64,000 bases of DNA. Origin: Martelella lutilitoris (GTDB taxonomy: Bacteria; Pseudomonadota; Alphaproteobacteria; Rhizobiales; Rhizobiaceae). A model generated the notes under the pieces. That model ran no database searches and had not been told where the DNA came from. It saw only the letters and a program-made list of their open reading frames with translations. The translations under genes were made by a program, and so were the position numbers. The stretch lies in NCBI RefSeq assembly GCF_005924265.1, contig NZ_VCLB01000001.1:62001-126000 (forward strand). Direction: 5' to 3'. Shown here piece by piece: positions 50,231 through 64,000 of this stretch. Within the stretch, counting starts at the first letter, position 1; the number at the start of each line of letters is the position of its first letter.

Positions 50231-51769
50231 ATGGTATCCAGGGTTCAAACGGTTGCATTTCAGGGGATCGAGGGTGTGCCGGTCGATGTCCAGGTGATGG
50301 TCGCGCCGGGCAAGATCGGCATGCAAATCGTCGGCCTGCCGGACAAGGCCGTGGCCGAAAGCCGCGAACGGGTGCAGGCCGCGCTCCACGCAACGGGCCT
50401 CGCCTTGCCGGCCAAGCGCGTGACGGTCAATCTTGCGCCCGCCGACCTGCCGAAGGAGGGTTCGCATTTCGATCTCGCCATAGCACTGGGCCTGATGGCA
50501 GCGCTCGGCGCGGTTCCGGCTGACGCGCTGGCGGATTACGTCGTCATCGGCGAGCTCAATCTCGACGGCACGATCGCCGCCGTGACCGGCGCGCTCCCCG
50601 CGGCGATGACCGCCAATGCCATGGACAAGGGCCTGATTTGCCCGGCGGACTGCGGGCCGGAAGCGGCATGGGCCGGCGCCGATATCGATGTCCTCGCGCC
50701 CAAAAGCCTGATTGCGATCGCCAATCATTTCAAGGGAACCCAGGTGCTCTCCCGCCCCGCCCCCGCCGTGCGCGCCGCAGCGCATGACCTGCCCGACCTT
50801 TCGGAGATCAAGGGGCAGGAAAGCGCCAAGCGCGCACTGGAGGTGGCGGCCGCTGGCGGCCATAACCTTCTGATGGTCGGCCCGCCGGGCGCCGGAAAAT
50901 CGATGCTGGCCGCACGCCTGCCCTCCATCCTGCCGCCGCTCCTGCCGCAGGAACTGCTGGACATGTCGATGGTGCATTCGATTGCCGGCAAGCTTGCCGG
51001 CGGGCGGCTTTCCGACCGACGGCCCTTCCGTGCGCCGCATCATTCCGCCAGCATGGCCTCGCTTGTCGGCGGCGGCATCAAGGCAAGGCCCGGCGAGGCC
51101 TCGCTTGCCCATCACGGCGTTCTGTTTCTCGACGAACTGCCGGAGTTTTCACCGCAGGTGCTCGATGCGCTGCGCCAACCGCTGGAAAACGGTGAGTGCG
51201 TGATTGCCCGCGCCAATCATCGCGTCTCCTATCCGGCTGCCTTTCAGCTTGTCGCCGCCATGAACCCGTGCCGCTGCGGCATGGCAGGGGAGCCGGGCCA
51301 CAGCTGCGCGCGCGGGCCGCGCTGCGCAAGTGAATATCAGGCACGGATTTCCGGACCGCTGATGGACCGGATCGACATCCGCATCGACGTGCCGGCGGTT
51401 GCCGCCATCGACCTCATCGGCGCAAGCGCAACCGGCGAGACCAGCGCCGCCGTCGCCCGCCGCGTTGCCCGCGCCCGCGAGGCCCAGCGCGAACGCTTCG
51501 CGGGCCTTGGAGAAAGCGCGGCAACCGTCAACGCCCGCGCATCGGCCAACATGATCGAGAAACTCGCCGAGCCCGATGCCGCGGGCCTCGCGCTGCTCCG
51601 GGAAGCGGCCGAAAAGATGCGGTTTTCGGCGCGCGGCTATCACCGCGTTTTAAAGGTCGCGCGCACCATTGCCGATCTCGACGGCAAGGCAAAAGTCGGC
51701 AGGGTCCATATCGGCGAGGCCATCGCCTACCGGGTCTCGGCAGCCGAGCGGATCACCACGGCAGCCTGA
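50231..51769 (+). CDS. YifB/ComM-like AAA+ ATPase
   Basis: A 512-residue Mg-chelatase-like ATPase. The N-terminal ChlI-related domain starts RVQTVAFQGIEGVPVDVQV; Walker A is GPPGAGKSM at about residue 218; FLDELPEFSPQVLDALRQPLE is the Walker B region. A zinc-finger-like CRCGMAGEPGHSCARGPRC lies toward the C-terminal third. ComM helicases assist branch migration during natural transformation, but the role here is not shown. No competence genes are nearby. Confidence 0.92.
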   Translation: MVSRVQTVAFQGIEGVPVDVQVMVAPGKIGMQIVGLPDKAVAESRERVQAALHATGLALPAKRVTVNLAPADLPKEGSHFDLAIALGLMAALGAVPADALADYVVIGELNLDGTIAAVTGALPAAMTANAMDKGLICPADCGPEAAWAGADIDVLAPKSLIAIANHFKGTQVLSRPAPAVRAAAHDLPDLSEIKGQESAKRALEVAAAGGHNLLMVGPPGAGKSMLAARLPSILPPLLPQELLDMSMVHSIAGKLAGGRLSDRRPFRAPHHSASMASLVGGGIKARPGEASLAHHGVLFLDELPEFSPQVLDALRQPLENGECVIARANHRVSYPAAFQLVAAMNPCRCGMAGEPGHSCARGPRCASEYQARISGPLMDRIDIRIDVPAVAAIDLIGASATGETSAAVARRVARAREAQRERFAGLGESAATVNARASANMIEKLAEPDAAGLALLREAAEKMRFSARGYHRVLKVARTIADLDGKAKVGRVHIGEAIAYRVSAAERITTAA

Positions 51770-53497: not shown

Positions 53498-54838
53498 TCA
53501 GCCCGGGTAGTTCCCGGCAAAGGTCCTGTCTGCCAGCTTCGGCAGCATGAAGCGGAAAGCGACCGAGCGAACGCCCTGAAACAGCAGCATGGCGATCCAC
53601 AGACCGTGATTGCCGAAGAGCGGCTGCAGCACGGCCCAGGCCGCAAAATAACAAGCAAGCGAAAACAGCATCAGCGTGCGCATCTCGCGTGACCATGTGG
53701 CGCCGATGAAGACCCCGTCCATCTGGAAGGCGATGACCCCGACCAGCGGCATGATCGCGGCATAAGGCAGGTAAACATGGGCCAGGGCCTGTGTCTCGGC
53801 GATCGGCGCGATCAGCGCCACCACGTAAGGCCCGGAGATGAAGAAGGCCCCGGAGACGGCAACGGCCATGGCCACGCCCCAAAGCGTCGTCAGCCTGATC
53901 ACGCGGTCGAAGGCCGGGCGGTAAAAGGCGCCGACGGCGCGGCCGGCAAGCTGCTCGGCCGCCGTGGCGAAGCCATCGAGAAAGGCGACGCCGAAGAAAT
54001 AATAGCGCAGCAACACCGTGTTGGCGGCAAGCACATCAATGCCCAGCACGCCCGATTGCCGGGTGAAAAAGGAAAGCCCGATCAGAAGCGCGAAGGAACG
54101 GATCATCATGTCGCGATTGACCGAGAACAGCCGCTTGACGGTGGAAATATCCGGCACTTCCCATTTGTGCCGGTCGGTGCGCCGCAGGATCAGGATGACG
54201 CCGGCAATCGCCGTAACGCCCTCGGCAACCAGGCTTGCCGCCCCCGCCCCGGCGAGACCGTAATTCAGCCACAGCACCCAGAAAAAGGCGAAGAACAGGT
54301 TGAGCGCGTTGAGCGCCACCTGCAGCAACAGCGCCGTCACCGCCTCGCCGCGACCGATGACCCAGCCGAAGACGACGAAATTGAACAGCGCAAAGGGCGC
54401 CGACCACACCCGCCAGGCATAATAGGTCCAGGCCGCCTCCCCCACCGCGCCATCGGCGCCGAGTACGTAAAGGCCGAGCCGGCCGATCGGCACATGCAAA
54501 AGCATGATCAGAAGGCCTGAACCGACCGCGATCAGGATGCCGCCAAGCAGCATGCGCTGTTCGGCCCGGCGGTCTTCCGCGCCGACGGCCTGAGCCGTGA
54601 AGCCGGTCGTTGCGCCGCGCAGAAAGTTGAAGGTGGTGAACAGCACGTCGAAGATCACCGCCGCCAGCGCCACGCCGCCGATCAGCACCTCGTCGCGCAA
54701 TTGCCCAACCACGCCGGTCGCCGCAAGGCTCACCAGCGGGGTGGAAAAATGCGCGATCATCATCGGCAAAGCGATGGTGAGCACCTGCCGGTGCGTCACC
54801 GAAAAGGGGCGCGGGGTGCGACCGGCGGTGTTTTCCAA
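53498..54838 (-). CDS. MATE family exporter
   Basis: A 446-residue, 12-helix multidrug and toxin extrusion protein (DinF-like branch). It begins with RQVLTIALPMMIAHFSTPLVS and has internal duplication of six-helix bundles. It starts with TTG at 54838 and lies only 6 bp after the AhpD-like gene, so it could be the last member of the racemase-transporter-oxygenase operon and export a product or toxic intermediate. Substrate unknown. Confidence 0.9.
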   Translation of the reverse strand: MENTAGRTPRPFSVTHRQVLTIALPMMIAHFSTPLVSLAATGVVGQLRDEVLIGGVALAAVIFDVLFTTFNFLRGATTGFTAQAVGAEDRRAEQRMLLGGILIAVGSGLLIMLLHVPIGRLGLYVLGADGAVGEAAWTYYAWRVWSAPFALFNFVVFGWVIGRGEAVTALLLQVALNALNLFFAFFWVLWLNYGLAGAGAASLVAEGVTAIAGVILILRRTDRHKWEVPDISTVKRLFSVNRDMMIRSFALLIGLSFFTRQSGVLGIDVLAANTVLLRYYFFGVAFLDGFATAAEQLAGRAVGAFYRPAFDRVIRLTTLWGVAMAVAVSGAFFISGPYVVALIAPIAETQALAHVYLPYAAIMPLVGVIAFQMDGVFIGATWSREMRTLMLFSLACYFAAWAVLQPLFGNHGLWIAMLLFQGVRSVAFRFMLPKLADRTFAGNYPG

Positions 54839-54844
54839 CGGAAC

Positions 54845-55423
54845 CTATTCCTTGACGTGCGGCTCGCCCAGCGTGTGCATCAGCCGGTTGGCCCAGCCGA
54901 AAATGGCGATGGCATGGATTAGGTCGAGGATCTCGAGGTCGTCAAGGCCCGTTTCCCGCAAATGATAGAACTGGTAGACGCCGACATTGTCCGGGTGCGC
55001 CGTCAGATCGACGCCGAAATTGAACAGCGCCTGGTCATAGTCCGGAAGGTCCGCCTCGAGCCCCTTCTCATAGATCGCCTCGATCACCTCCGGGCGCTTC
55101 TCGACCTGAATATGGCGGTTGGCATGCACGGCCGCGCAATAGATGCACTTGTTGACGAAGGAGGCCGCTAGCGCGCCCATCTCGCGCCCACCGCGCGAAA
55201 GACCCTCCTTGGAATACATGATGTCGTTGAAGAGCGGCGAGCGCTCCTTCAGCGTTTCCGGCTCCTGCGCCAGCACCAGAACATAGTCGGACACCTTGGT
55301 GTTGGACGGCGTGATCTGCAGGGCGTCGCGCTGTTCGTCGTTCGCGGTTTCCAGGTCGACGGGCTTCACGTAGGGATGCCAGTCGAGCGGCTTCAGGGTG
55401 AATTCGTGAACGGGTTCGGACAT
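54845..55423 (-). CDS. AhpD-like alkylhydroperoxidase (Avi_7169 type)
   Basis: A 192-residue carboxymuconolactone-decarboxylase-fold protein. The redox centre Cys93-x-x-Cys96-x3-His100 (NKCIYCAAVHANR) is intact, so peroxide reduction is plausible. It resembles the Avi_7169 family, which is always paired with a CMD protein like the one encoded 1 bp upstream. Cytoplasmic. Part of the ten-gene operon. Confidence 0.85.
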   Translation of the reverse strand: MSEPVHEFTLKPLDWHPYVKPVDLETANDEQRDALQITPSNTKVSDYVLVLAQEPETLKERSPLFNDIMYSKEGLSRGGREMGALAASFVNKCIYCAAVHANRHIQVEKRPEVIEAIYEKGLEADLPDYDQALFNFGVDLTAHPDNVGVYQFYHLRETGLDDLEILDLIHAIAIFGWANRLMHTLGEPHVKE

Positions 55424-55424
55424 G

Positions 55425-55907
55425 TCAGTGGTCCCTCAGCATCTTCAGCCCGGCAACGACCAGGATCTGGTAATTGACGAAGGCCGTCAGGCTTGCCAGC
55501 GTCACGATGTCCCGGTCATCAAGCCCGGCGGCATAGAGTTTTTCAACGTCCGCGCGGGTCGCCTCCTTCGGCGTCAGCGTCACCTTGTCGACCCGCTCGA
55601 GGATGGCATCGAGCTTCGCATCGGCCTTTCCGGGCCGGAAGCCCGTGTCGAGGATCGCGTCGAAGGCGGTCTCACCATAGCTCTCCAGCAGATCGCGGTA
55701 ATGCGCCTCAAGCTCGGCGGCCCTCCACAGCGCGCACATGCGCGCGGCAAGGGCTGCGCGCAACGCAAAGCTGAAATTGCCGGGCTCCTTCGGCGTCAGC
55801 GCCGCCTCGCAGCTTGCCTGCGTCTTCTGTTTCAAGAGTTCGCGCCGGTTTCTGAGCGCAATCATGTCGGCATCCTCGCCGAGCACCTTGTCGATCACAT
55901 CGACCAT
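55425..55907 (-). CDS. CMD-domain protein without CxxC (Avi_7170 type)
   Basis: A 160-residue partner of the AhpD-like protein. The fold matches the Avi_7170 CMD family (VDVIDKVLGEDADMIALRNRR and VTLASLTAFVNYQILVVAGL), but the CxxC redox pair is missing; only isolated cysteines remain. It may be a structural or regulatory subunit of a heteromeric complex. Its stop is 1 bp from the next start. Confidence 0.8.
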   Translation of the reverse strand: MVDVIDKVLGEDADMIALRNRRELLKQKTQASCEAALTPKEPGNFSFALRAALAARMCALWRAAELEAHYRDLLESYGETAFDAILDTGFRPGKADAKLDAILERVDKVTLTPKEATRADVEKLYAAGLDDRDIVTLASLTAFVNYQILVVAGLKMLRDH

Positions 55908-55919
55908 TGAAGTCTCCCT

Positions 55920-56513
55920 TCAGTCTTCCGACAATGCTTCGTCGAGAAAATCGAGCCGGTCCTGCCCCCAGTAGAGCACGTCCTTGTAGATCCACGTCGG
56001 CGTGCCGAACACGCCGCGCGCGGTCGCCTCGGCATGGCTGTCATGCCAGGCCTGAACGATTTCGGGCTCCTCTTCCATCGCCTGCAGCGCCGTGCCGTCA
56101 AGGCCGATGCGGTTGGCAACGTCGATGCGCACTTCGGGCTGGGTGACATCCAGTTCCTCACTCCACAACGCATGCAGAAGCGCGTGGGAGAGTTCGAGCG
56201 CCGGCAGGCCCTCGCGGTCGGCGGCAATCACCATGCGGGCGGAGAACTCGTTGTTGGTCGGATAATGCGCCGGTTTGAGAACCAGCGGCATGTTGAGACG
56301 CTTGCGCCAGCGATCAAGCTCCACGGCGTGGTAATCCTGGCGCGGCTGCGGGCGCGAGCGCAGCGGCACGCCGCCATTGTCCGGCACGATCCGGGTCGGA
56401 CGGACGACGACATCGAGGTCATGCTTTTCGATCAGCGCCTTGAACTGCGGCCAGCCGAGATAGGCCCAGGGAGACGAGAGCGCGTGATAATAATAGACGG
56501 TCTTTTTGGTCAT
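55920..56513 (-). CDS. DsbA-fold HCCA isomerase/kappa GST-like protein
   Basis: A 197-residue thioredoxin-fold protein of the 2-hydroxychromene-2-carboxylate isomerase group. The usual CxxC is replaced by Ser13-Ser14-Pro15-Trp, as in isomerases/kappa GSTs that use serine with glutathione, and GVFGTPTWIY carries the cis-proline. It probably isomerises or conjugates an electrophilic product with glutathione. No signal peptide. GAAGGACAAGACC precedes the ATG. Confidence 0.82.
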   Translation of the reverse strand: MTKKTVYYYHALSSPWAYLGWPQFKALIEKHDLDVVVRPTRIVPDNGGVPLRSRPQPRQDYHAVELDRWRKRLNMPLVLKPAHYPTNNEFSARMVIAADREGLPALELSHALLHALWSEELDVTQPEVRIDVANRIGLDGTALQAMEEEPEIVQAWHDSHAEATARGVFGTPTWIYKDVLYWGQDRLDFLDEALSED

Positions 56514-56524
56514 GGTCTTGTCCT

Positions 56525-57970
56525 TCAGGCCTGCTCGGCGGCCACGGCGTCGGCATCGGTCCATTCGCTGCCGTCAAGCTCCGGGCTCTCGTAGCTGAGC
56601 AGATCCTCCCAATGCTGTTCCAGATCCTTGCGGAACAGGCTGGAGGCGACCCCGCGCGCAAGCCAGAGCGCGCCCTCGCTGATCGCCGGAATGTCGCCGG
56701 AGACCTTGCCGAGGCTCATGGCCGAACTGTAATTGAAGCTGTGAATATCCGCGAGGAAGGGTGCAGCGCCTTCCTTCTTTTCCGAAAAGGAGAAATCGGG
56801 GTTGAGCCAGGGAAAACGCCCGAGACCGGGGTTCCGCTCTTCCGGCGGCGGCGTGTAGCGGTCTTCCCAGCAGGCGATCTCGGCGTTGAAGGGCGCAAAT
56901 TCCGGTCGCGCCATCGGGTCAACGGTAAAGCCGGTGCCCAGGATCAGGAAATCGCAGCGGAATTCGCGGCCGGTCACCGTGGTGATCACCACTTCAGCGC
57001 CGTCCTGCTCCACCTTGGCGATGCCGCAGTTGAAATGGAAGTAGGCGTTCTCGTGGCGGCTGACGCGCAGGGTCGAACCGTGCGGGGCCGGCGTCTGCTG
57101 CTTGTCGCCGTAATCCATGATCCGCCAGCGCCACTCGGGCGAAAGATCCGGCAGGCCGGCCGTCACGCCATAGGAACCGATGCCCATCAGCTTGTTGATC
57201 GTCGGCATCTTCTTGCGCCGCGCCAGAAGGCGGACTTCCGCAGCCCCATGTTCCAGGGCTTCCGCCGCATTGTCGACGGCGGATGCGCCGACGCCGATGA
57301 CGACGACGCGCTTGCCTTTCCATTTGTCGAAATCGATCTCGTCGGCCGAATGCGCCCAGCTTTCGCGCGGCAGGCCGGAGACGAAGCCCGGAACCGTGCC
57401 CTTGCCAAGCCCGTCGCGCCCCGTCGCCCAGATCAGCTTGCGGGTGAGGATGATGTCGCCATCGGCCATTTTCAGGGCCAAAAGCCCGTCTTCGCGCGGG
57501 ATGACGCGTTCGACCTTCAGGCCGTTTTCAACCGGCGCGCCGGTCACCTTGCGGTACCAGACGAGATAGTCCTGCCACATCGGCCGGGGAATGCGGTAGA
57601 GTTCGTCCCAGGCCTTTGTGCCGAACTGGGCGCGATACCAGGCCTGAAAGGTGAGCGAGGGAATGCCGAGCGCAGGACCGAGCAGGTTTTTCGGCGAGCG
57701 CAGCGTCTCCATGCGCGCATAGGTGAGCCACGGGCCCTCCTTGCCCTCCGGCGCCATATCGATGAGGCGGGTATTGTGCATGCCCTGGCGCTTCAGCTGC
57801 AGCCAGGCGGCGAGCCCGCACATGCCGGCGCCGACGATGACGATATCGCTCACCGGCGTGCCGTCGACCGGGCCAACCGGTTTGACCCAGTTGGCGGAGG
57901 GAAAGTTCAGATAATCAAGATCCTGGCGAACCCGTTCGTTCAGCGCGTCAAGCGCTTTTTCATTGGTCAT
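56525..57970 (-). CDS. Flavin-dependent monooxygenase-like protein
   Basis: A 481-residue two-dinucleotide-domain flavoprotein. FAD loop GAGMCG at 47-52; NADPH loop GVGASA at 226-231. Between them F196-x2-G199 and H207 form a stretched variant of the BVMO/FMO fingerprint. It should oxygenate an N-, S- or carbonyl-containing substrate, class B type. It lies between the transporter ATPase and the HCCA-isomerase-like gene, implying action on the imported compound. An oxidoreductase without oxygenation is possible. Confidence 0.82.
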   Translation of the reverse strand: MTNEKALDALNERVRQDLDYLNFPSANWVKPVGPVDGTPVSDIVIVGAGMCGLAAWLQLKRQGMHNTRLIDMAPEGKEGPWLTYARMETLRSPKNLLGPALGIPSLTFQAWYRAQFGTKAWDELYRIPRPMWQDYLVWYRKVTGAPVENGLKVERVIPREDGLLALKMADGDIILTRKLIWATGRDGLGKGTVPGFVSGLPRESWAHSADEIDFDKWKGKRVVVIGVGASAVDNAAEALEHGAAEVRLLARRKKMPTINKLMGIGSYGVTAGLPDLSPEWRWRIMDYGDKQQTPAPHGSTLRVSRHENAYFHFNCGIAKVEQDGAEVVITTVTGREFRCDFLILGTGFTVDPMARPEFAPFNAEIACWEDRYTPPPEERNPGLGRFPWLNPDFSFSEKKEGAAPFLADIHSFNYSSAMSLGKVSGDIPAISEGALWLARGVASSLFRKDLEQHWEDLLSYESPELDGSEWTDADAVAAEQA

Positions 57971-58000
57971 GTCTTCAGTCCTTCACGAATTCCAGGGCCT

Positions 58001-59071
58001 TCAATCGGCCAGCACCACAGCGTCTTCCTCGCGCCAGCCGATCCAGACATCGTCGCCCTCCAGATGCGCGAGCGCCACGGGGTCAAGCTGGGCGACGAGC
58101 GACTGCCCCTCGTTGAGGCCGACGGTGAGCGCGGTGAAATTGCCCTTGAACAGCCGGTTGGTGATCCTGCCGGGAAGCGCAATCCTGCGGTCCGGCTCGC
58201 GGCTGACCGCATAGATTGCTTCCGGTCTCAGCGCCACGGTGACATGGCTGCCAACCTTGGCGGCGGGGCCGGTGAGCGTGGCGTGGATGATGTGGCCGCA
58301 CCAGTCGAGCGTGGCGATATTGCCTTCGACGGAGCGCAGTTCGGCATCGAGGAAGTTCGATTCGCCGATGAAGGTGGCGACGAAGCGGTTGACCGGCCGG
58401 GCGTAAAGCGTATGGGGATCGCCCATCTGCTCGACCCTGCCGTTGTTCATCACGACAATGAGGTCCGACATGGTCAGCGCCTCTTCCTGGTCATGGGTGA
58501 CGAAGAGGAAGGTCTTGCCGGTCTTTTCCTGAATGCTCTTGAGCTCGATCTGCATCTGGTGGCGAAGCTTCGCGTCAAGCGCCGACAGCGGTTCGTCCAG
58601 CAGCAGCACATCGGGATCGGGCGCCAGCGCGCGCATCAGCGCCACGCGCTGGCGCTGGCCGCCGGAAAGCTGGTCGGGCATGCGGTCGGCGTAATCCTGA
58701 AGCTCCACAAGCGCCAGAAGATCCATCACCCGGGCATGGATCTTCTCCGATGGCATGCCCTTCAGCTCAAGCCCGAAGGCAATGTTGCGACCAACCGTCA
58801 GATGCGGAAACAGCGCATAGTCCTGGAACACGATGTTGACGTTGCGCCGGTGCGGCGGCAGGTGGGTCACATCCTTGCCATCGAGCAGGATCGCGCCGGA
58901 GGACGGGTCCTCAAAACCGCCCAGCATGCGCAGCGAGGTCGATTTTCCGCAGCCTGACGGGCCCAGAAGGGTGACGAACTTGCCGCGCTCGATCTTGAGG
59001 TCGAGATTGTTCACGGCAAGCGACTTGCCATAATATTTGTTGACGTTCTTGAAGTGGACGAGCGGTTGCAT
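58001..59071 (-). CDS. Polyamine-type ABC transporter ATPase (PotA-like)
   Basis: A 356-residue ATPase with Walker [23 protein letters not shown], signature [15 protein letters not shown], Walker B LLLDEPLSALDAKLR and a C-terminal TOBE domain. It energises the two permeases encoded 1-800 bp upstream. PotA-type transporters carry spermidine/putrescine, 2-aminoethylphosphonate, opines or similar; substrate unknown here. Confidence 0.92.
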   Translation of the reverse strand: MQPLVHFKNVNKYYGKSLAVNNLDLKIERGKFVTLLGPSGCGKSTSLRMLGGFEDPSSGAILLDGKDVTHLPPHRRNVNIVFQDYALFPHLTVGRNIAFGLELKGMPSEKIHARVMDLLALVELQDYADRMPDQLSGGQRQRVALMRALAPDPDVLLLDEPLSALDAKLRHQMQIELKSIQEKTGKTFLFVTHDQEEALTMSDLIVVMNNGRVEQMGDPHTLYARPVNRFVATFIGESNFLDAELRSVEGNIATLDWCGHIIHATLTGPAAKVGSHVTVALRPEAIYAVSREPDRRIALPGRITNRLFKGNFTALTVGLNEGQSLVAQLDPVALAHLEGDDVWIGWREEDAVVLAD

Positions 59072-59072
59072 T

Positions 59073-59864
59073 TCAGTTCCTTGAGCGGCGGACGCGGCGC
59101 TCGGCGTAAAGCCCGACGGCGCCGGTGGCGATGAGGACGAGTGTTGCCATGGCGTTGATTTCCGGCGACATGCCGCCCGAAATCTTGGCGAAGATCAGCA
59201 TGGGAAGGGTGGTCTGGTAGCCACCGAGGAAGAAGGTGCGGACGAAATCGTCGATACTGGTCAGCGCGCAGAAGATCATGCCGCCAACCAGCGCCGGGCC
59301 GAGATAGGGCAGCGTGACGCGGAAGAAGGCGATGAAATTGTCGGCGCCGAGATCACGCGCGGCATCGATGAGGCTTGAGGGCATCGAGCGCAGCCTGGTC
59401 ATCGCCATGATCACCACGAAGGGTACGGCATGCACCGTATGGCCGAGGATGATGGCGAAGGTGCCGGTCGGCACATCGATGGCGCGGATGAAGATGCGCA
59501 TCGAGATCGCCTGGATCATGCCCGGCACGACGGCAGGCAGACAGGCGAGCGCGAAGATGAGGGCCTTGCCCCAGATCGCCTCGTTGGAAGCAAGAAGCGC
59601 AATCCACACCCCGACCGCCGTCGCAACGATCGTGACGATGAAGGCGATCATCAGCGAATAGCCGACGGCGCTCAGGAACTGTTCGTCCTGCACCACCTGC
59701 ACGTACCATTTCATCGTGAAGCTATCGATCGGAAACGAGATGAAGTTCGAATCCTTGAAGCTCATCGCCGTCATCAGCATCAACGGCACGAAGAGATAGG
59801 CAACGAAAGCCCAGTAGAAGCCAGTGAGGAAGACGTTTTGCGGGTTCTTCATGTAAAATCGCAT
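59073..59864 (-). CDS. Polyamine-type ABC permease (PotC-like)
   Basis: A 263-residue permease with six helices; EAA loop PSSLIDAARDLGADNFIAF. GAGGGACGG precedes the ATG at 59864; a second ATG at 59852 is possible. One bp separates it from the ATPase gene. Confidence 0.9.
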   Translation of the reverse strand: MRFYMKNPQNVFLTGFYWAFVAYLFVPLMLMTAMSFKDSNFISFPIDSFTMKWYVQVVQDEQFLSAVGYSLMIAFIVTIVATAVGVWIALLASNEAIWGKALIFALACLPAVVPGMIQAISMRIFIRAIDVPTGTFAIILGHTVHAVPFVVIMAMTRLRSMPSSLIDAARDLGADNFIAFFRVTLPYLGPALVGGMIFCALTSIDDFVRTFFLGGYQTTLPMLIFAKISGGMSPEINAMATLVLIATGAVGLYAERRVRRSRN

Positions 59865-59874
59865 TGTCCGTCCC

Positions 59875-60858
59875 TCACATCAGTTTCACGTTGCGCCCGC
59901 CGACAACCCGCATGAACAGGCCGACCGTGGTGAGCGAGATCAACAGCATGATGATCGAGAAGGCGGCGCCCGCCGGCCATTTGTCGTTGGAGCCGTGGAA
60001 CAGCTGGGCGATGATTTCCGGAAAGATCACCGTGTTGGGACCGCCGAGCAGAAGCGGCGCGGCGAAGACGCCGATCGAGGTGAGGAACACCAGGCTGCAG
60101 CCCGAGACGATGCCATCGCGCGACAAGGGCAGGATCACCCGGCGGAAGCGCTGCAGCGGACCGGCGCCGAGATCGGAGGCGGCGTCGAGCAGGCTGTTCG
60201 GGATCTTCTCGATCGAGGAATAGAGCGGCAGCAGCATGTAGAGCGCGATCAGGTAGACGACGCCGAAGCTCAGCGAAAAATAGGTGTAGAGCATCGGGAT
60301 CGGCCGGTCGATCATGCCAAGCTCGCGCAGGAGCGCGTTGACGGCGCCGCGGTTGGCCAGAAGCATGATTACGGAAAAGACGCGGATGATCTCGCCCGCC
60401 CAGAACGGCGTCAAGAGCAGCAGCAGCGCCTTGTTGCGCGAGGCGGGGCGGATGACCTTGCCGATGTAATAGGCGACCGGATAGACCACGACCAGCGTTG
60501 ACGCCGTCACCACGATGGAAAAGACGAGGCTGCGCAGGAAGGGCACGAAATAGAGGCTTTCCTGGAAGAACAGCGCGTATTGCGAGAAGGTATAAACCGG
60601 CTCGGCGCCATCCAGCAGAGGATAATTGGCAAGCAGCGAGATATTGCCCATCTGCAGGATCGGGCCGATATTGAAGAAGGCGATCCAGGCCAAGGGCACG
60701 GCGAGCAGGACGACAAGCCGGGCCAGCCGGTTTTCGGCAACAAGGCCGATCGTGCCGCGGTAGGCCGGAGAGTTGGCAACCTTGCCGATCCAGCTTGAAT
60801 AGCGCGCGGTCGATTTCTTTGCGCCCTGCCCCTCACTGGCCAAAACATCATTGGTCAT
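59875..60858 (-). CDS. Polyamine-type ABC permease (PotB-like)
   Basis: A 327-residue permease with an extra N-terminal charged tail before the first helix (LVVLLAVPLAWIAFFNIG) and EAA loop PNSLLDAASDLGAGPLQRF. Start at 60858 or 60873, neither with a clear ribosome site. It heads the permease pair. Confidence 0.88.
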   Translation of the reverse strand: MTNDVLASEGQGAKKSTARYSSWIGKVANSPAYRGTIGLVAENRLARLVVLLAVPLAWIAFFNIGPILQMGNISLLANYPLLDGAEPVYTFSQYALFFQESLYFVPFLRSLVFSIVVTASTLVVVYPVAYYIGKVIRPASRNKALLLLLTPFWAGEIIRVFSVIMLLANRGAVNALLRELGMIDRPIPMLYTYFSLSFGVVYLIALYMLLPLYSSIEKIPNSLLDAASDLGAGPLQRFRRVILPLSRDGIVSGCSLVFLTSIGVFAAPLLLGGPNTVIFPEIIAQLFHGSNDKWPAGAAFSIIMLLISLTTVGLFMRVVGGRNVKLM

Positions 60859-60939
60859 AGTGTGAAAATCCATAGATTGAAAAAGCTGCGCGGTGGCGCA
60901 GACGGCCGGGCGGACAACGCTGCCCGGCCGTGGCATTGA

Positions 60940-62040
60940 TCAGGCAGCCTTGATTTCGGCAACGGCCCTGTCGATCATCTCGTTCTTCATGTCGCGGTTT
61001 TCTTCGGCGAAGAACTGGATGCGGGCGATCTGCTCTTCCGGCAGCGCGATCGCGGCGCGCTCGCGATCCGTCAGAAGCTGGTCGACGCCGGAAAAGGCGC
61101 TGGCAAAGCCGGACTGGCGCGTCATCGCTGCGCCGACTTCCGGATTGGCGAGAAGCGCGGAGAAGAACGTGTAGGCCGCATCCACGTTCGGCGCATGGTT
61201 GACCAGGTTGAAGGAGTAGAGGAAGCCGTAGGTGCCTTCCTTCGGGATCGACAGTTCGATCGGAAAACCGTCCATGATCAGCTTGGCGGCCGGGCCCGAC
61301 CATGTCTGGGCGACATAGACGTCCTCGTTGACCAGCATCTGCTGCACTTCGGCGCCGCCGTCATAGAACTTGCGGACCATATCCTTGTGTTCGATCAGGA
61401 AGTCGCGAGCCGCGTTCACCGCCGCCTGGGCCTCTTCCGGTTTGTCGACATAGGCGACGAAGTCACCGTCATAGCCGAGATATTTCATGGTGATCGAAAC
61501 GAAGTCGGAGATGATGTAGGTGGTGAAGCCCTTGTATTCCGGATCGAACATCAGGCCCCAGCTGTCGGACGGCTTGGTGTAGTCGGTGTTGCGGACCATG
61601 CCCTCGAAGCCGGCGAGCAGCGGAATGCCGTAGACCTCGCCCTTGCGGATAAGCTGCGGTGCGCCCTTGTAGGGCCCGGCGAGATTATCCCAGGTGGAGA
61701 TGCGGGACGGATCGATCGGCTGCAGGAGATCGGAGGCCATGAACTGGCTGAGACGGTGACCGGCGACGGTGACGATATCGGTGGTCGGATCTGCGCCCTC
61801 GGCGGCGAGCAGGTTGTACTGCTTGCCCTGGTCGTCTGTCAGGCGAATGCGCACCTCGATGCCGGTATCCTTCTCGAACTGCTCGACGAAGCCTTCGGGG
61901 AGGAACTTGTCGTAGGTAGTGATGTTGAGGACATTGCTCTGGGCATAGGCCGGGCGAATGATGGACGGTGCGGCGATGAGACCAGCACTTGTCCCCATCA
62001 TCTTCAGGGTCGTGCGCCGTGTCGGATTGCGAAGTGTCAT
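60940..62040 (-). CDS. Tat-exported polyamine/opine-type binding protein
   Basis: A 366-residue extracellular solute-binding protein related to PotD. The leader carries twin arginines (Arg8-Arg9 in TRRTTLKMM) and a hydrophobic stretch ending PAYAQ, so Tat export of a folded protein is likely. AGGAGATCGAG precedes the ATG. First transporter gene, after the racemase gene, in the operon. Confidence 0.88.
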   Translation of the reverse strand: MTLRNPTRRTTLKMMGTSAGLIAAPSIIRPAYAQSNVLNITTYDKFLPEGFVEQFEKDTGIEVRIRLTDDQGKQYNLLAAEGADPTTDIVTVAGHRLSQFMASDLLQPIDPSRISTWDNLAGPYKGAPQLIRKGEVYGIPLLAGFEGMVRNTDYTKPSDSWGLMFDPEYKGFTTYIISDFVSITMKYLGYDGDFVAYVDKPEEAQAAVNAARDFLIEHKDMVRKFYDGGAEVQQMLVNEDVYVAQTWSGPAAKLIMDGFPIELSIPKEGTYGFLYSFNLVNHAPNVDAAYTFFSALLANPEVGAAMTRQSGFASAFSGVDQLLTDRERAAIALPEEQIARIQFFAEENRDMKNEMIDRAVAEIKAA

Positions 62041-62110
62041 TCTCGATCTCCTGGTTTGTTCGTCCCGCGTCCGGTCCCTCTCGGCCGGAGCGCGGGCGTT
62101 TCTCGCCGAC

Positions 62111-62854
62111 CTAGTGGACTGGAACGGGCCGGCTTTCTTTCCCCTCCGCTGAAAGCTCGTCTTCCAGGGAGAACCTGACGGCCGCCTCTGCGTGAAGCAG
62201 CGTCGAATCAAAACTCGGTATGTCGAAATCGTCCGGACGGACCAGAAGTCCGACCTCGGTGCAGCCGAAGATGATGCAGTCGGCGCCCTTCTGCCTGGCT
62301 CGCTCGGCGATCGCGATATAGCGTTCGCGCGATGCGCCGCTGAGCACCCCGCAGCAGATCTCCTCAAAGATCACATCATGCACCGTGGCCCGGTCGGCCT
62401 CTCCGGGAATGACCGGATCGAGGCCGAAATGGTCCTTGAGGTAACCGACATAGAACGGCTTCTCCATCGTGTAGCGCGTGGCCAGAAGCAGCGGCCGCTT
62501 CTTTCCGGCCTTCTTCACCGCAGCGCCCGTCACCTCGGCGATGTGGATCAGCGGAATATCGATCGCCGCCTGCACCTCGTCGGCGAGAATGTGCATCGTG
62601 TTGGTGCAGATCAGCACCATGGCGCAGCCGCATTGTTCCAGTTCGCGGGCAACCGAGATCAGCGTTTCGGCCGCAAGGTCCCAGCGTCCGGCCTTCTGCT
62701 GCGCCACGATCTCGGAAAAATTGACGGAGCGCAGACAAAGATCCGCCGAAGCCAAGCCGTCGCCCATCAGGCGCCGGACCTCCTCGTTGATGTGCTTGTA
62801 ATACACCGCGGTGCTCTCCCAGCTCATGCCGCCGATCAGGCCTATCCTTTTCAT
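62111..62854 (-). CDS. Aspartate/glutamate-type racemase
   Basis: A 247-residue cofactor-independent racemase. The two catalytic cysteines are Cys83 (LICTNTMH) and Cys198 (FGCTEVGLL), and the start MKRIGLIGGMSWESTAVYY matches Asp/Glu racemase proteins such as YgeA. It probably inverts an amino acid released from, or similar to, the imported compound. It opens the leftward operon, 71 bp before the binding protein. Confidence 0.88.
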   Translation of the reverse strand: MKRIGLIGGMSWESTAVYYKHINEEVRRLMGDGLASADLCLRSVNFSEIVAQQKAGRWDLAAETLISVARELEQCGCAMVLICTNTMHILADEVQAAIDIPLIHIAEVTGAAVKKAGKKRPLLLATRYTMEKPFYVGYLKDHFGLDPVIPGEADRATVHDVIFEEICCGVLSGASRERYIAIAERARQKGADCIIFGCTEVGLLVRPDDFDIPSFDSTLLHAEAAVRFSLEDELSAEGKESRPVPVH

Positions 62855-63252
62855 TGTCTCGTTCTCAATTCTGTTTCAGGTACGAACATAATCAGCGTAG
62901 CGGACCTGACAGAAGAGAGTTTTCTTATTTTTGCACAAAGGCAAAAATCCAAGCAAATATGTCCTACTGAACCTCAAATAATGCGGAAATTTTCTCTCTT
63001 TTGAAAACTTGACATAAATCCCATACTCGTGCACAAATTTTACTCAATAGATACAATTCACCAAAACTTGAGCAAAGCATGCGGAATTTTCTGCATTTTG
63101 ACAAGGGTCAACCGTCCAATTTAGCCATATCTGCAGTTGCGTTGCGGCGTCAGATTTTGTCGAAATGGCAAGGCATATGAAAATTTCTTCTCAATTTTCA
63201 GACAGTTCTGAGAATTTCATCCCGACCGCAGGATATCAGGGGAGCCCCGAGA
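62855..63252. promoter_or_regulatory. 398-bp AT-rich divergent control region
   Basis: No gene. AT-rich compared with neighbours. TTGACA boxes occur at 63009 and 63098; the second is in TTGAC-AAGG-GTCAA. Three similar motifs with ATG starts at 62981, 63079 and 63177 are exactly 98 bp apart, each followed by an A/T core. Likely holds the promoters of the racemase operon and of the Lrp gene and several Lrp sites. Confidence 0.6.
62981..63202. repeat. Three motif copies with 98-bp period
   Basis: ATGCGGAAATTTTCTCTC (62981), ATGCGGAATTTTCTGC (63079) and the weaker ATGAAAATTTCTTCTC (63177). The octamer TGCACAAA also recurs 98 bp apart at 62932 and 63030. Probable decayed tandem duplication kept as regulator sites. 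Confidence 0.6.
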
Positions 63253-63714
63253 ATGTTTGACGAGATCGACCGCAAGATCGTCGATATCCTGCAGCGCCAG
63301 GCGGACCGGACGGTCAGCGAGATCGCCGAGGAGGTCGGCCTTTCGCACACGCCTTGCTGGCGGCGGATCAAGCGCATGGAGGACCTCGGCTTCATCCGCG
63401 CCCGCGTTGCCCTCATCGACCGCAAGATGGCCAATATTCCGATGACCATCTTCATCGCCGTCAAGGCGCCGCGCCACGCCATTGAATGGTTCGACGAGTT
63501 CCGCAAGCAGATCAGGGATATCCCCGAGGTGACGGAGGCCTACCGGCTGACCGGCGATACGGACTACCTGCTGAGGATTGTCGTGCCCGACATCGAGACC
63601 TATGACCAGGTCTACAAGAACCTGATTTCGCGGCTGGAGTTTTCCGACATCAACTCCTCGATCGCGATGGAGGAGCTGAAATTCACCACGGCGCTGCCGA
63701 CCAACTACATGTAA
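63253..63714 (+). CDS. Lrp/AsnC family regulator
   Basis: A 153-residue feast/famine regulator: N-terminal helix-turn-helix (VSEIAEEVGLSHTPCWRRIKRM at about 20-42) and a C-terminal RAM ligand-binding domain (VTEAYRLTGDTDYLLRIVVPD). It likely senses an amino acid and controls the divergent operon, itself and the following dehydrogenase gene 22 bp downstream. Normal length. Confidence 0.93.
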   Translation: MFDEIDRKIVDILQRQADRTVSEIAEEVGLSHTPCWRRIKRMEDLGFIRARVALIDRKMANIPMTIFIAVKAPRHAIEWFDEFRKQIRDIPEVTEAYRLTGDTDYLLRIVVPDIETYDQVYKNLISRLEFSDINSSIAMEELKFTTALPTNYM

Positions 63715-63736
63715 GAAGACAAAGGCTCGAAGACCC

Positions 63737-64000
63737 ATGAAAATCGCAATTCTCGGCGCTGGAAACAACGCCTACGGCCTTGCTGCCTTCATCGCCGATG
63801 CCGGCCATGCGCCCGTGCTCTGGTCTCCTTCCGGCACGAATGCCCTGGCGCTTGCCGAGGGCACGGCGCTGATGGCCACCGGCGCGGTGGAATTCGAAGG
63901 TCCCGTTGGCGTGGCCGCCTCATGCGAAGAGGCCGTCAGCAGCGCCGATCTGGTGATGATCGCCATGCCGGTCAACGGCCACAGGGCGGCAATCGACGCC
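63737..64000 (+). CDS. Opine-dehydrogenase-like protein (5' end only)
   Basis: The frame continues past the window edge; 88 residues are visible. The N-terminal Rossmann loop KIAILGAGNNAYGLAAFIAD followed by GHAPVLWSP resembles NAD/NADP octopine/nopaline dehydrogenases. It would reductively join or oxidatively split an amino acid and a keto acid. Its neighbours (racemase, polyamine/opine-type transporter) support an opine-like theme. Confidence 0.7.
   Translation, partial: MKIAILGAGNNAYGLAAFIADAGHAPVLWSPSGTNALALAEGTALMATGAVEFEGPVGVAASCEEAVSSADLVMIAMPVNGHRAAIDA

What the first reader, a model, noticed from the sequence alone, without database searches (positions are those of the whole stretch)
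53498..64000. Uncharacterised racemase-transporter-monooxygenase module under Lrp control
Ten leftward genes, mostly 1-30 bp apart (some 70-80 bp), combine a Cys/Cys racemase, a Tat-exported binding protein, PotBCA-type transporter, flavoprotein monooxygenase, HCCA-isomerase-like protein, an active and an inactive CMD protein and a MATE exporter. An Lrp regulator and an opine-dehydrogenase-like gene start divergently. Neither part matches a pathway I know. Reading: uptake of an amino-acid- or opine-like compound, oxygenation, glutathione-linked processing and peroxide defence.
Basis: partly seen in the sequence, partly recalled or inferred. Interest (0 to 1): 0.78.

Follow-up and report, generated by a model that had tools for sequence, protein, structure and literature searches.

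The report
Conserved flavin-monooxygenase/CMD-pair amino-acid utilisation operon
A bacterial gene cluster pairs an oxygen-using enzyme with two partner proteins that recur together in many bacteria, and its neighbours suggest that it takes up and breaks down an unusual cysteine-derived compound.

Summary
Ten leftward genes (53498-62854), with gaps of 1-81 bp, face a rightward Lrp gene and an opine-dehydrogenase-like gene that ends beyond the window. All twelve recur in three named genomes. The core is smaller: a flavoprotein monooxygenase plus an inactive/active CMD pair. At least one CMD partner is near in 77 of 80 named loci, found with a CMD-linked query; transporters differ, and the CMDs are fused in 11. 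The module is broad in range but sparse (3 of 384 other class genomes). Racemase, GST-kappa-like protein and MATE are optional. The importer is Pot-like, but the polyamine site is lost. The substrate is not shown. Neighbours of relatives point to a cysteine-derived compound, chiefly a desulfurase-like PLP enzyme, which also co-occurs with the inactive CMD across genomes (10/19 against 22/132, p=0.001). Against this: of the sulfur genes I looked for, none is in the window operon and only that enzyme appears, in 2 of 14 close family loci; and the monooxygenase model is nearest to amine N-hydroxylases. I read it as a FAD-type variant of the CMD-pair/monooxygenase systems.

The parts
62111..62854 (-). 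YgeA-type Asp/Glu racemase family protein with both catalytic cysteines (C83, C198); optional part of the module
   Evidence: in 3 of 80 named loci and in family locus L053
60940..62040 (-). PotD/PotF-like solute-binding protein with twin-arginine signal; PotD Trp255 and Asp257 replaced in 34 of 34 copies
59875..60858 (-). PotB-like permease (alternative start at 60936)
59073..59864 (-). PotC-like permease
58001..59071 (-). PotA-like ATPase (TIGR01187 373.4 bits, cutoff 355.6)
56525..57970 (-). FAD-type flavoprotein monooxygenase-like protein (two dinucleotide-binding motifs); core gene
55920..56513 (-). HCCA-isomerase/GST-kappa-like DSBA-fold protein; optional part
55425..55907 (-). Inactive CMD protein (AhpD fold, no CxxC); core gene
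54845..55423 (-). Active CMD/peroxidase-related protein with E81-C93-C96-H100; core gene
53498..54838 (-). MATE family exporter (TTG start); optional part
63253..63714 (+). Lrp/AsnC family regulator, divergent from the operon
63737..64000 (+). NAD(P) opine-dehydrogenase-like gene (first 264 bases in the window; whole gene 358 aa in L003 11738-12814)
62855..63252 (.). 398-bp divergent region between racemase and Lrp genes

Best explanation
A catabolic operon for a modified amino acid, most likely a cysteine-derived sulfur compound (S-substituted or cyclic). SHOWN: gene content, order, motifs and the recurring core. INFERRED: a Pot-like ABC importer that no longer fits polyamines brings the compound in. 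The YgeA-type racemase sets the alpha-carbon configuration, or handles D-cysteine that is released. The FAD/NAD(P)H monooxygenase oxygenates the compound (at S, or at N or C next to it) so that a C-S or C-N bond breaks. The inactive and active CMD proteins work as one unit (they are fused in 11 loci) and reduce or cleave the oxidised intermediate with the CxxC thiols. The GST-kappa-like protein may deliver glutathione. The opine-dehydrogenase-like enzyme handles the carbonyl or imine fragment. MATE exports surplus product and the Lrp protein senses an amino-acid product. Confidence that it is a catabolic monooxygenase/CMD module: about 0.9.
For: Core: all 14 fetched family relatives with FMO identity of 52% or more carry both CMDs, 12 of 14 the same SBP-PotBCA and 11 of 14 the opine-dehydrogenase-like gene. 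In 80 named loci the active CMD is near in 76 and the inactive one is separate in 66 or fused in 11; the pair directly follows the FMO in 55, and in 4 more after the isomerase-like gene. Sulfur: (1) a PLP enzyme of the SufS superfamily (142 bits, SufS cutoff 475) in 18 of 80 loci, all 18 with RGGC[AS]CAG, whose second Cys aligns with the Cys of the RxGxxCAxP loop of the window genome's own SufS-like protein (its catalytic role is recalled). It occurs in Pot, TRAP, Opp and His transporter contexts. (2) It is followed by a persulfide-dioxygenase-like gene in L073, L125, L135, L207, L209, L210, L212, and by TauE/SafE in L073 and L207 (NF040641 533 bits, cutoff 625); a TauE/SafE gene also lies beside ODH in S. 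meliloti. (3) Cds1-like protein in L124 and L138 (547.5 bits, cutoff 600). (4) BisC-family S/N-oxide reductase-like protein in 5 loci (754.5 bits, cutoff 1017.55). (5) The binding protein of one His-type variant (L126) is nearest in the PDB to YtmK (E 4e-17). (6) Over 151 genomes the PLP enzyme (E 1e-90) is in 10 of 19 genomes with the inactive CMD (E 1e-15) and 22 of 132 without, Fisher p=0.0012 (p=0.0006 without one weak CMD match); it is adjacent in only 2 of the 10. Racemase (E 1e-75) as control: 4 of 19 and 22 of 132, p=0.74. (7) Lrp relatives (68%) lie within 1.4-6.4 kb of a related PLP enzyme in L221 and L222, with an ATC-hydrolase family gene in L221.
Against: None of the sulfur genes (TauE, persulfide dioxygenase, Cds1, BisC, PLP enzyme, ATC hydrolase) is in the window operon, and among the 14 close family loci only the PLP enzyme is found, in 2 (L040, L042). 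The window genome has no ortholog of the PLP enzyme (best 31%, its SufS-like protein) and no Tdh match at E 1e-40. The FMO model is nearest to amine N-hydroxylases, and a Pfam Lys/Orn oxygenase match passes its cutoff. By NCBIfam, the L126 binding protein scores higher for lysine/arginine/ornithine (54.8 bits) than for cystine (41.4), both far below cutoff. More distant FMOs sit among genes that look like amidohydrolases and creatininases (by eye). Kbl-Tdh in 6 of 14 family loci is not explained by sulfur. The racemase shows no genome-level link to the module and never co-occurs with the PLP enzyme at the thresholds used (0 of 32 against 26 of 119, p=0.0013). The co-occurrence thresholds were chosen by me and the genomes are related, so p-values are optimistic.
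Confidence: 0.42

Rival explanations
1. The monooxygenase is an N-hydroxylase or amine N-oxygenase: the operon degrades a sulfur-free amine or N-heterocycle by N-oxygenation and C-N cleavage, the CMD pair reducing the N-oxygenated intermediate.
For: Predicted FMO structure is closest to putrescine, lysine and ornithine N-hydroxylases; Pfam Lys_Orn_oxgnase 32 bits over cutoff 21.3; FMOs of 34-40% identity lie among genes that look by eye like amidohydrolases, creatininases and amidases; HyuAB-like genes in L053 (caprolactamase models, below cutoff) and L124.
Against: The structural match is weak (TM about 0.6, 14-18% identity) and may only reflect the common two-Rossmann fold. Those amidohydrolase-type loci lack the CMD pair. 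Sulfur genes recur in several transporter contexts of the CMD-linked FMOs.
Confidence: 0.27
2. Opine utilisation: an N-(carboxyalkyl)amino acid is imported, split by the opine-dehydrogenase-like enzyme, and the amino acid is racemised and oxidised.
For: The ODH is a family member (PF02317 122.1 bits, cutoff 30; 1BG6 E 1.4e-32), in 11 of 14 close family loci and, at any similarity found, in 43 of 80 named loci.
Against: It does not explain why the FMO and CMD pair are the recurring core, nor why ODH was not found in 37 of the 80 named loci.
Confidence: 0.15
3. Polyamine or gamma-aminobutyrate-type uptake and oxidation.
For: Transporter subunits are best matched by PotA, PotB, PotC and PotF models.
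Against: PotD Asp257 is S/T/N and Trp255 is V/L/C in 34 of 34 relatives; Glu36 is K 14, D 11, N 5, S 2, E 1, G 1.
Confidence: 0.04
4. Efflux or detoxification island: MATE export of a toxic compound with CMD peroxide defence, the importer being incidental.
For: MATE at the operon end; a racemase-MATE-Lrp cassette without FMO in L191.
Against: MATE is in only 9 of 80 named loci, whereas an importer was seen near the FMO in 63 of 81 rows.
Confidence: 0.06

Closest known systems
Avi_7169/Avi_7170 CMD pair with KPN_01858 luciferase-like monooxygenase (TIGR04030, TIGR04029, TIGR04027), e.g. Pantoea alfalfae L076
   Same: An inactive-type and an active-type CMD (fused in Pantoea) next to a monooxygenase and an ABC importer
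   Different: The monooxygenase is luciferase-like there and FAD type here; an amidohydrolase gene follows there and none is among the twelve genes here; the window CMD proteins score below both cutoffs, while the A. fabrum C58 inactive CMD passes TIGR04029 (101.9, cutoff 100.75)
S-alkylcysteine salvage: Scm/Yxe and CmoO/CmoJ (PMC9706529 and PMC12757645, passages seen; PMC10863075, abstract and opening seen)
   Same: Flavin-dependent oxygenation that frees cysteine; YtmK-like binding protein in one His-type variant here
   Different: Those use N-acetylation and deacetylation around the monooxygenase; neither enzyme is among the twelve genes here
Agrobacterium fabrum C58 pAt cluster ATU_RS25880-25930
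   Same: ODH-like, SBP, PotBCA-like, FMO, HCCA-isomerase-like, CMD, peroxidase-related and MATE genes in the same order
   Different: LysR instead of Lrp; no racemase; no functional study found
N-hydroxylating flavoprotein monooxygenases (putrescine N-hydroxylase 7us3, lysine 6-monooxygenase 5cqf, PvdA, SidA)
   Same: Best structural matches to the FMO model
   Different: 14-18% identity; known from siderophore-type synthesis, not with CMD pairs (recalled)

Membership tests
TIGR04029/TIGR04030 CMD-pair system | Inactive CMD reaches TIGR04029 cutoff 100.75 | tested here: not met
   Window 91.9 bits; C58 ortholog 101.9 and an Achromobacter fused form 112.6 do reach it
TIGR04029/TIGR04030 CMD-pair system | Active CMD reaches TIGR04030 cutoff 233.15 | tested here: not met
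   149.1 bits; broader peroxid_rel TIGR01926 is met, 222.4 over 81.8
TIGR04029/TIGR04030 CMD-pair system | Luciferase-like monooxygenase neighbour (TIGR04027) | tested here: not met
   FAD-type flavoprotein instead
AhpD-type CMD thiol enzyme | Glu, CxxC and His arranged as in AhpD (arrangement recalled) | tested here: met
   E81, C93, C96, H100 invariant in 15 rows; CxxCxxxH 77 of 77
S-alkylcysteine salvage (scm/ytn type) | N-acetyltransferase and N-acetylcysteine deacetylase in the cluster | tested here: not met
   Neither among the twelve genes
S-alkylcysteine salvage (scm/ytn type) | Substrate is an S-substituted cysteine | not testable with these tools
   Only neighbour evidence
PotABCD polyamine importer | Polyamine-binding residues of PotD (Glu36, Trp255, Asp257; roles recalled) | tested here: not met
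   Replaced (alignment; 34 copies)
Asp/Glu-type amino-acid racemase (TIGR00035) | Family score and two catalytic cysteines | tested here: met
   217.1 bits over 93.1; Cys in both motifs in 7 of 7
YgeA aspartate/glutamate racemase equivalog (NF007569) | Score over cutoff 417 | tested here: not met
   249.5 bits
Octopine/nopaline dehydrogenase family | PF02317 domain; active-site His of CENDH (role recalled) | tested here: met
   122.1 bits over 30; His aligned
Class-B flavoprotein monooxygenase | Two dinucleotide-binding motifs in one chain | tested here: met
   GAGMCG and GVGASA, invariant glycines in 17 rows
Class-B flavoprotein monooxygenase, FMO-like Pfam family PF00743 | Score over gathering cutoff 22 | tested here: not met
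   18.3 bits; Pyr_redox_3 62 over 30 and Lys_Orn_oxgnase 32 over 21.3 are met
Class-B flavoprotein monooxygenase | NAD(P)H- and O2-dependent oxygenation | not testable with these tools
   needs an enzyme assay

The most novel reading that the evidence does not exclude
An undescribed route, spread across several proteobacterial classes, that frees cysteine from S-conjugated or cyclic cysteines without N-acetylation, using a FAD-type flavoprotein monooxygenase and an obligatory pseudoenzyme-enzyme CMD pair, with interchangeable importers and a racemase version that would also use D-configured substrates.
Probability: 0.27. Interest if true: 0.75.

Novelty: new variant of a known kind. Interest (0 to 1): 0.55.

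Why it matters
If right, several uncharacterised families (inactive CMD, peroxidase-related CMD, this FMO subfamily, a SufS-like PLP enzyme beside a persulfide-dioxygenase-like gene) would share one pathway that is found on the pAt plasmid of A. fabrum C58 and on S. meliloti plasmids, so it could be tested in standard laboratory strains. A recurring pair of one active and one inactive CMD also makes the role of CMD pseudoenzymes testable.

Tried and rejected
Polyamine transport was rejected on binding-site residues. The racemase as a core part was rejected: it is in 3 of 80 named loci and shows no genome-level association. The Lrp-racemase pair is a separate recurring unit: both genes, divergent, are in 10 of the 14 further family loci examined. 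Peroxide defence as the main role was set aside because the CMD pair follows the monooxygenase through changes of transporter. A conserved Lrp site was sought: the four-way alignment of the divergent region shares only short stretches away from the gene ends, and promoter- and terminator-like sites are no more frequent than in shuffles. A class-wide search with the single inactive CMD matched 3 of 384 other genomes: the module is sparse, or one short divergent sequence is a poor query; in the window's family an alignment query matched 19 of 151, one of them weak and partial. The binding protein of an Opp-type variant matched dipeptide-, nickel- and opine-binding proteins alike in the PDB and told nothing.

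Literature: searches found no paper on function of these genes; the locus tags searched were guesses from memory. Searches gave comparison papers only. Recalled, not found in the library: a 2SC route with a carbamylated intermediate, and CyuR being of the Lrp family (a search for Lrp in PMC11408624 found 0 occurrences). Selection: one search gave 31 FMO places besides the operon's own; 30 were fetched (G117 was left out). Alignment A1, used for the 80 named loci, held 17 FMOs, all CMD-linked; the 14 of 30 fetched places whose FMO lacks CMD neighbours were left out of it, so the 77 of 80 is partly chosen. Of 32 genomes with the PLP enzyme, 20 were looked at. In the control loci my gene caller found very few genes in L063, so the ten-locus control is in effect smaller.


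Full report
What is there. The window is bases 62001-126000 of contig 1 of a 4.45-Mb genome. Its family is taken to be Rhizobiaceae, because one family member (G071) has a contig of the same length as the named Ensifer sesbaniae record found later. On the minus strand ten genes follow one another from 62854 down to 53498: racemase, solute-binding protein, two permeases, ATPase, flavoprotein monooxygenase (FMO), GST-kappa/HCCA-isomerase-like protein, inactive CMD protein, active CMD protein, MATE exporter. Gaps are 70, 81, 10, 1, 30, 11, 12, 1 and 6 bp; a terminator-like stem lies in the 81-bp gap. Across 398 bp lie, on the plus strand, an Lrp/AsnC regulator and, 22 bp further, an opine-dehydrogenase-like gene that ends outside the window.

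Is it conserved? FMO relatives at E 1e-60 occur in 30 of 151 family genomes, the window's own included. I fetched 15-20-kb surroundings (11 kb where the contig was short) of 30 of the 31 other FMO places. All 14 with identity of 52% or more (L034-L047) carry both CMD genes; 12 of 14 carry the same binding protein and PotBCA-like genes, 11 of 14 the opine-dehydrogenase-like gene. Among the 16 others, two (L048, L053) have the CMD pair and 14 do not; L053 also has Lrp and racemase relatives. A scan of named bacterial genomes with an FMO alignment gave the best 80 loci. In these, the active CMD is near in 76 and the inactive CMD is separate in 66 and fused to the active one in 11. L132 has the inactive CMD at the end of the stretch held; L111 ends just after the FMO; L119 and L128 have no CMD in view. 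The alignment held only CMD-linked FMOs, so this frequency is partly chosen. Still, the transporter label changes 12 times on the FMO tree (Pot 34, Opp 15, His 8, TRAP 3, Liv 3, none seen 18 of 81 rows, 'none seen' counted as a label) while the CMD pair stays. The range is broad but the module is sparse: a class-wide search with the window's inactive CMD matched 3 of 384 other genomes. The cluster lies on pAt of A. fabrum C58 and on S. meliloti and Shinella plasmids. The twelve-gene set of the window recurs in L082, L083 and L087.

What is core and what is optional. Core: FMO, inactive CMD, active CMD. The active CMD keeps E81, C93, C96 and H100 in 15 aligned rows and CxxCxxxH in 77 of 77; the inactive one has CxxC in 0 of 67. 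Profile comparison links the two (probability 95.8%), and a model of the inactive one (pLDDT 91) matches peroxidase-related AhpD folds (TM 0.68, E 2e-4). Fusion in 11 loci argues that they act as one unit (inference). Optional in the 80: racemase (3), GST-kappa-like (5), MATE (9), any Lrp relative (23), any LysR relative (32). Lrp and racemase form a divergent pair by themselves elsewhere (10 of 14 further family loci), once with MATE but without FMO (L191).

Transport. The binding protein belongs to the PotD/PotF family. Read from the alignment with 1POT, PotD Trp255 and Asp257 are replaced in all 34 relatives aligned (V/L/C and S/T/N) and Glu36 is K 14, D 11, N 5, S 2, E 1, G 1; Trp229 is kept. 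The roles of these PotD residues are recalled. A polyamine is therefore unlikely.

Chemistry of the monooxygenase. It has two dinucleotide-binding motifs. Its model (pLDDT 84.5) is closest to amine N-hydroxylases (7us3, 5cqf, PvdA, SidA; TM about 0.6, 14-18% identity), and it passes the cutoff of Pfam's Lys/Orn oxygenase model but not of the FMO-like model. That is a point for N-oxygenation; the level of similarity does not exclude S-oxygenation.

Neighbours that point to sulfur. (a) A class-V PLP enzyme of the SufS superfamily (142 bits, far below the SufS cutoff 475) in 18 of 80 loci, all with RGGC[AS]CAG. Its second Cys aligns with the Cys of the RxGxxCAxP loop in the window genome's SufS-like protein. 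It is near the FMO in Pot, TRAP, Opp and His contexts. (b) In the 20 of 32 genomes with this enzyme that I looked at, it lies divergently beside an Lrp-type gene in 17 and is followed by a persulfide-dioxygenase-like gene in 4 (L207, L209, L210, L212), with TauE/SafE in L207. The same order lies near the FMO module in L073 (with TauE/SafE), L125 and L135. (c) A Cds1-like protein in L124 and L138, and a BisC-family reductase-like protein in L128, L132, L135, L136 and L138; these and the dioxygenase score below NCBI's equivalog or subfamily cutoffs. (d) The binding protein of one His-type variant (L126) is nearest to YtmK in the PDB (that YtmK binds cystine-like compounds is recalled), though NCBIfam scores it higher for lysine/arginine/ornithine than for cystine, both below cutoff. 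(e) Lrp relatives of 68% lie near a related PLP enzyme in L221 and L222, with an ATC-hydrolase family gene in L221. (f) Genome co-occurrence in the 151 family genomes: PLP enzyme in 10 of 19 genomes with the inactive CMD and in 22 of 132 without (Fisher p=0.0012; 0.0006 without the weak match in G026); the two are adjacent in only 2 of the 10 (G024, G125). Racemase, used as control: 4 of 19 and 22 of 132 (p=0.74). The sulfur set was not found near the ten more distant FMO places without CMD (L054-L063; few genes were called in L063).

Results against. The window operon has none of these sulfur genes; of the 14 close family loci only two (L040, L042) have one, the PLP enzyme. The window genome has neither the PLP enzyme nor, at E 1e-40, Tdh (a search without a positive control). 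Kbl and Tdh (glycine C-acetyltransferase and threonine 3-dehydrogenase, over cutoff) lie in 6 of 14 family loci and Kbl in 5 of 80 named loci, and beside the PLP enzyme without FMO in L223; sulfur alone does not explain them. The racemase and PLP enzyme exclude each other at the thresholds used (0 of 32 against 26 of 119, p=0.0013), which may mean alternative solutions or only different clades; a weaker racemase relative (47%) does lie near the PLP enzyme in L208.

Known relatives. NCBI's models TIGR04029, TIGR04030 and TIGR04027 describe a similar CMD pair with a luciferase-like monooxygenase. The Pantoea copy scores over all three cutoffs, while the window CMD proteins fall below theirs. Known S-alkylcysteine salvage uses N-acetylation, a flavin monooxygenase (or a lyase) and deacetylation (passages of PMC9706529 and PMC12757645; abstract and opening of PMC10863075). 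[quoted passage not shown] The present module has neither acetyltransferase nor deacetylase among its twelve genes, so if it does handle S-conjugates it does so in another way. I found no functional paper on it.

Verdict. The best mechanism is catabolic oxygenation of a modified, probably cysteine-derived, amino acid by FMO plus CMD pair; the substrate remains inferred.

Noticed in passing
G000:C15:87165-88541 (L054): A second FMO of the same family (36%) in the window's genome, among genes that look by eye like amidohydrolases, a creatininase and a sugar-type ABC importer; similar genes recur in several of L055-L061.
   Followed up: partly
L051 and L063 (G006, G111): FMO relatives of 41-42% kept in two family genomes of only 1.1-1.5 Mb, with no other module gene found nearby by tblastn.
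   Followed up: no
L205-L224: The SufS-like PLP enzyme and the YgeA-type racemase never occur in the same one of 151 genomes at the thresholds used, though both often lie divergently beside an Lrp-type gene.
   Followed up: partly
L035, L040-L042, L044, L045, L117, L223: Kbl-Tdh gene pair recurs beside the FMO/CMD module or beside the SufS-like enzyme.
   Followed up: partly
L050 and L069 (Martelella mediterranea pMM593): Lrp, racemase, Liv-type importer, ATC-hydrolase family protein (PF14196) and FMO (43-44%) form a related cluster without CMD genes.
   Followed up: partly
L191 (G145): Lrp (77%), racemase (62%) and MATE (69%) relatives form a cassette without FMO, as if this cassette and the module had been merged in the window.
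   Followed up: no
L049: FMO (44%) followed by the GST-kappa-like protein and a dipeptidase-like gene, with a gamma-glutamyltransferase-like gene and a peptide importer on the other strand (labels by eye from sequence).
   Followed up: no
window 60901-60886, minus strand: Terminator-like stem with a T-run in the SBP-PotB gap; could lower expression of the downstream genes, or be chance.
   Followed up: no
window 50231-51769: A Mg-chelatase/ComM-like ATPase gene (by eye) just beyond the cluster; unrelated.
   Followed up: no
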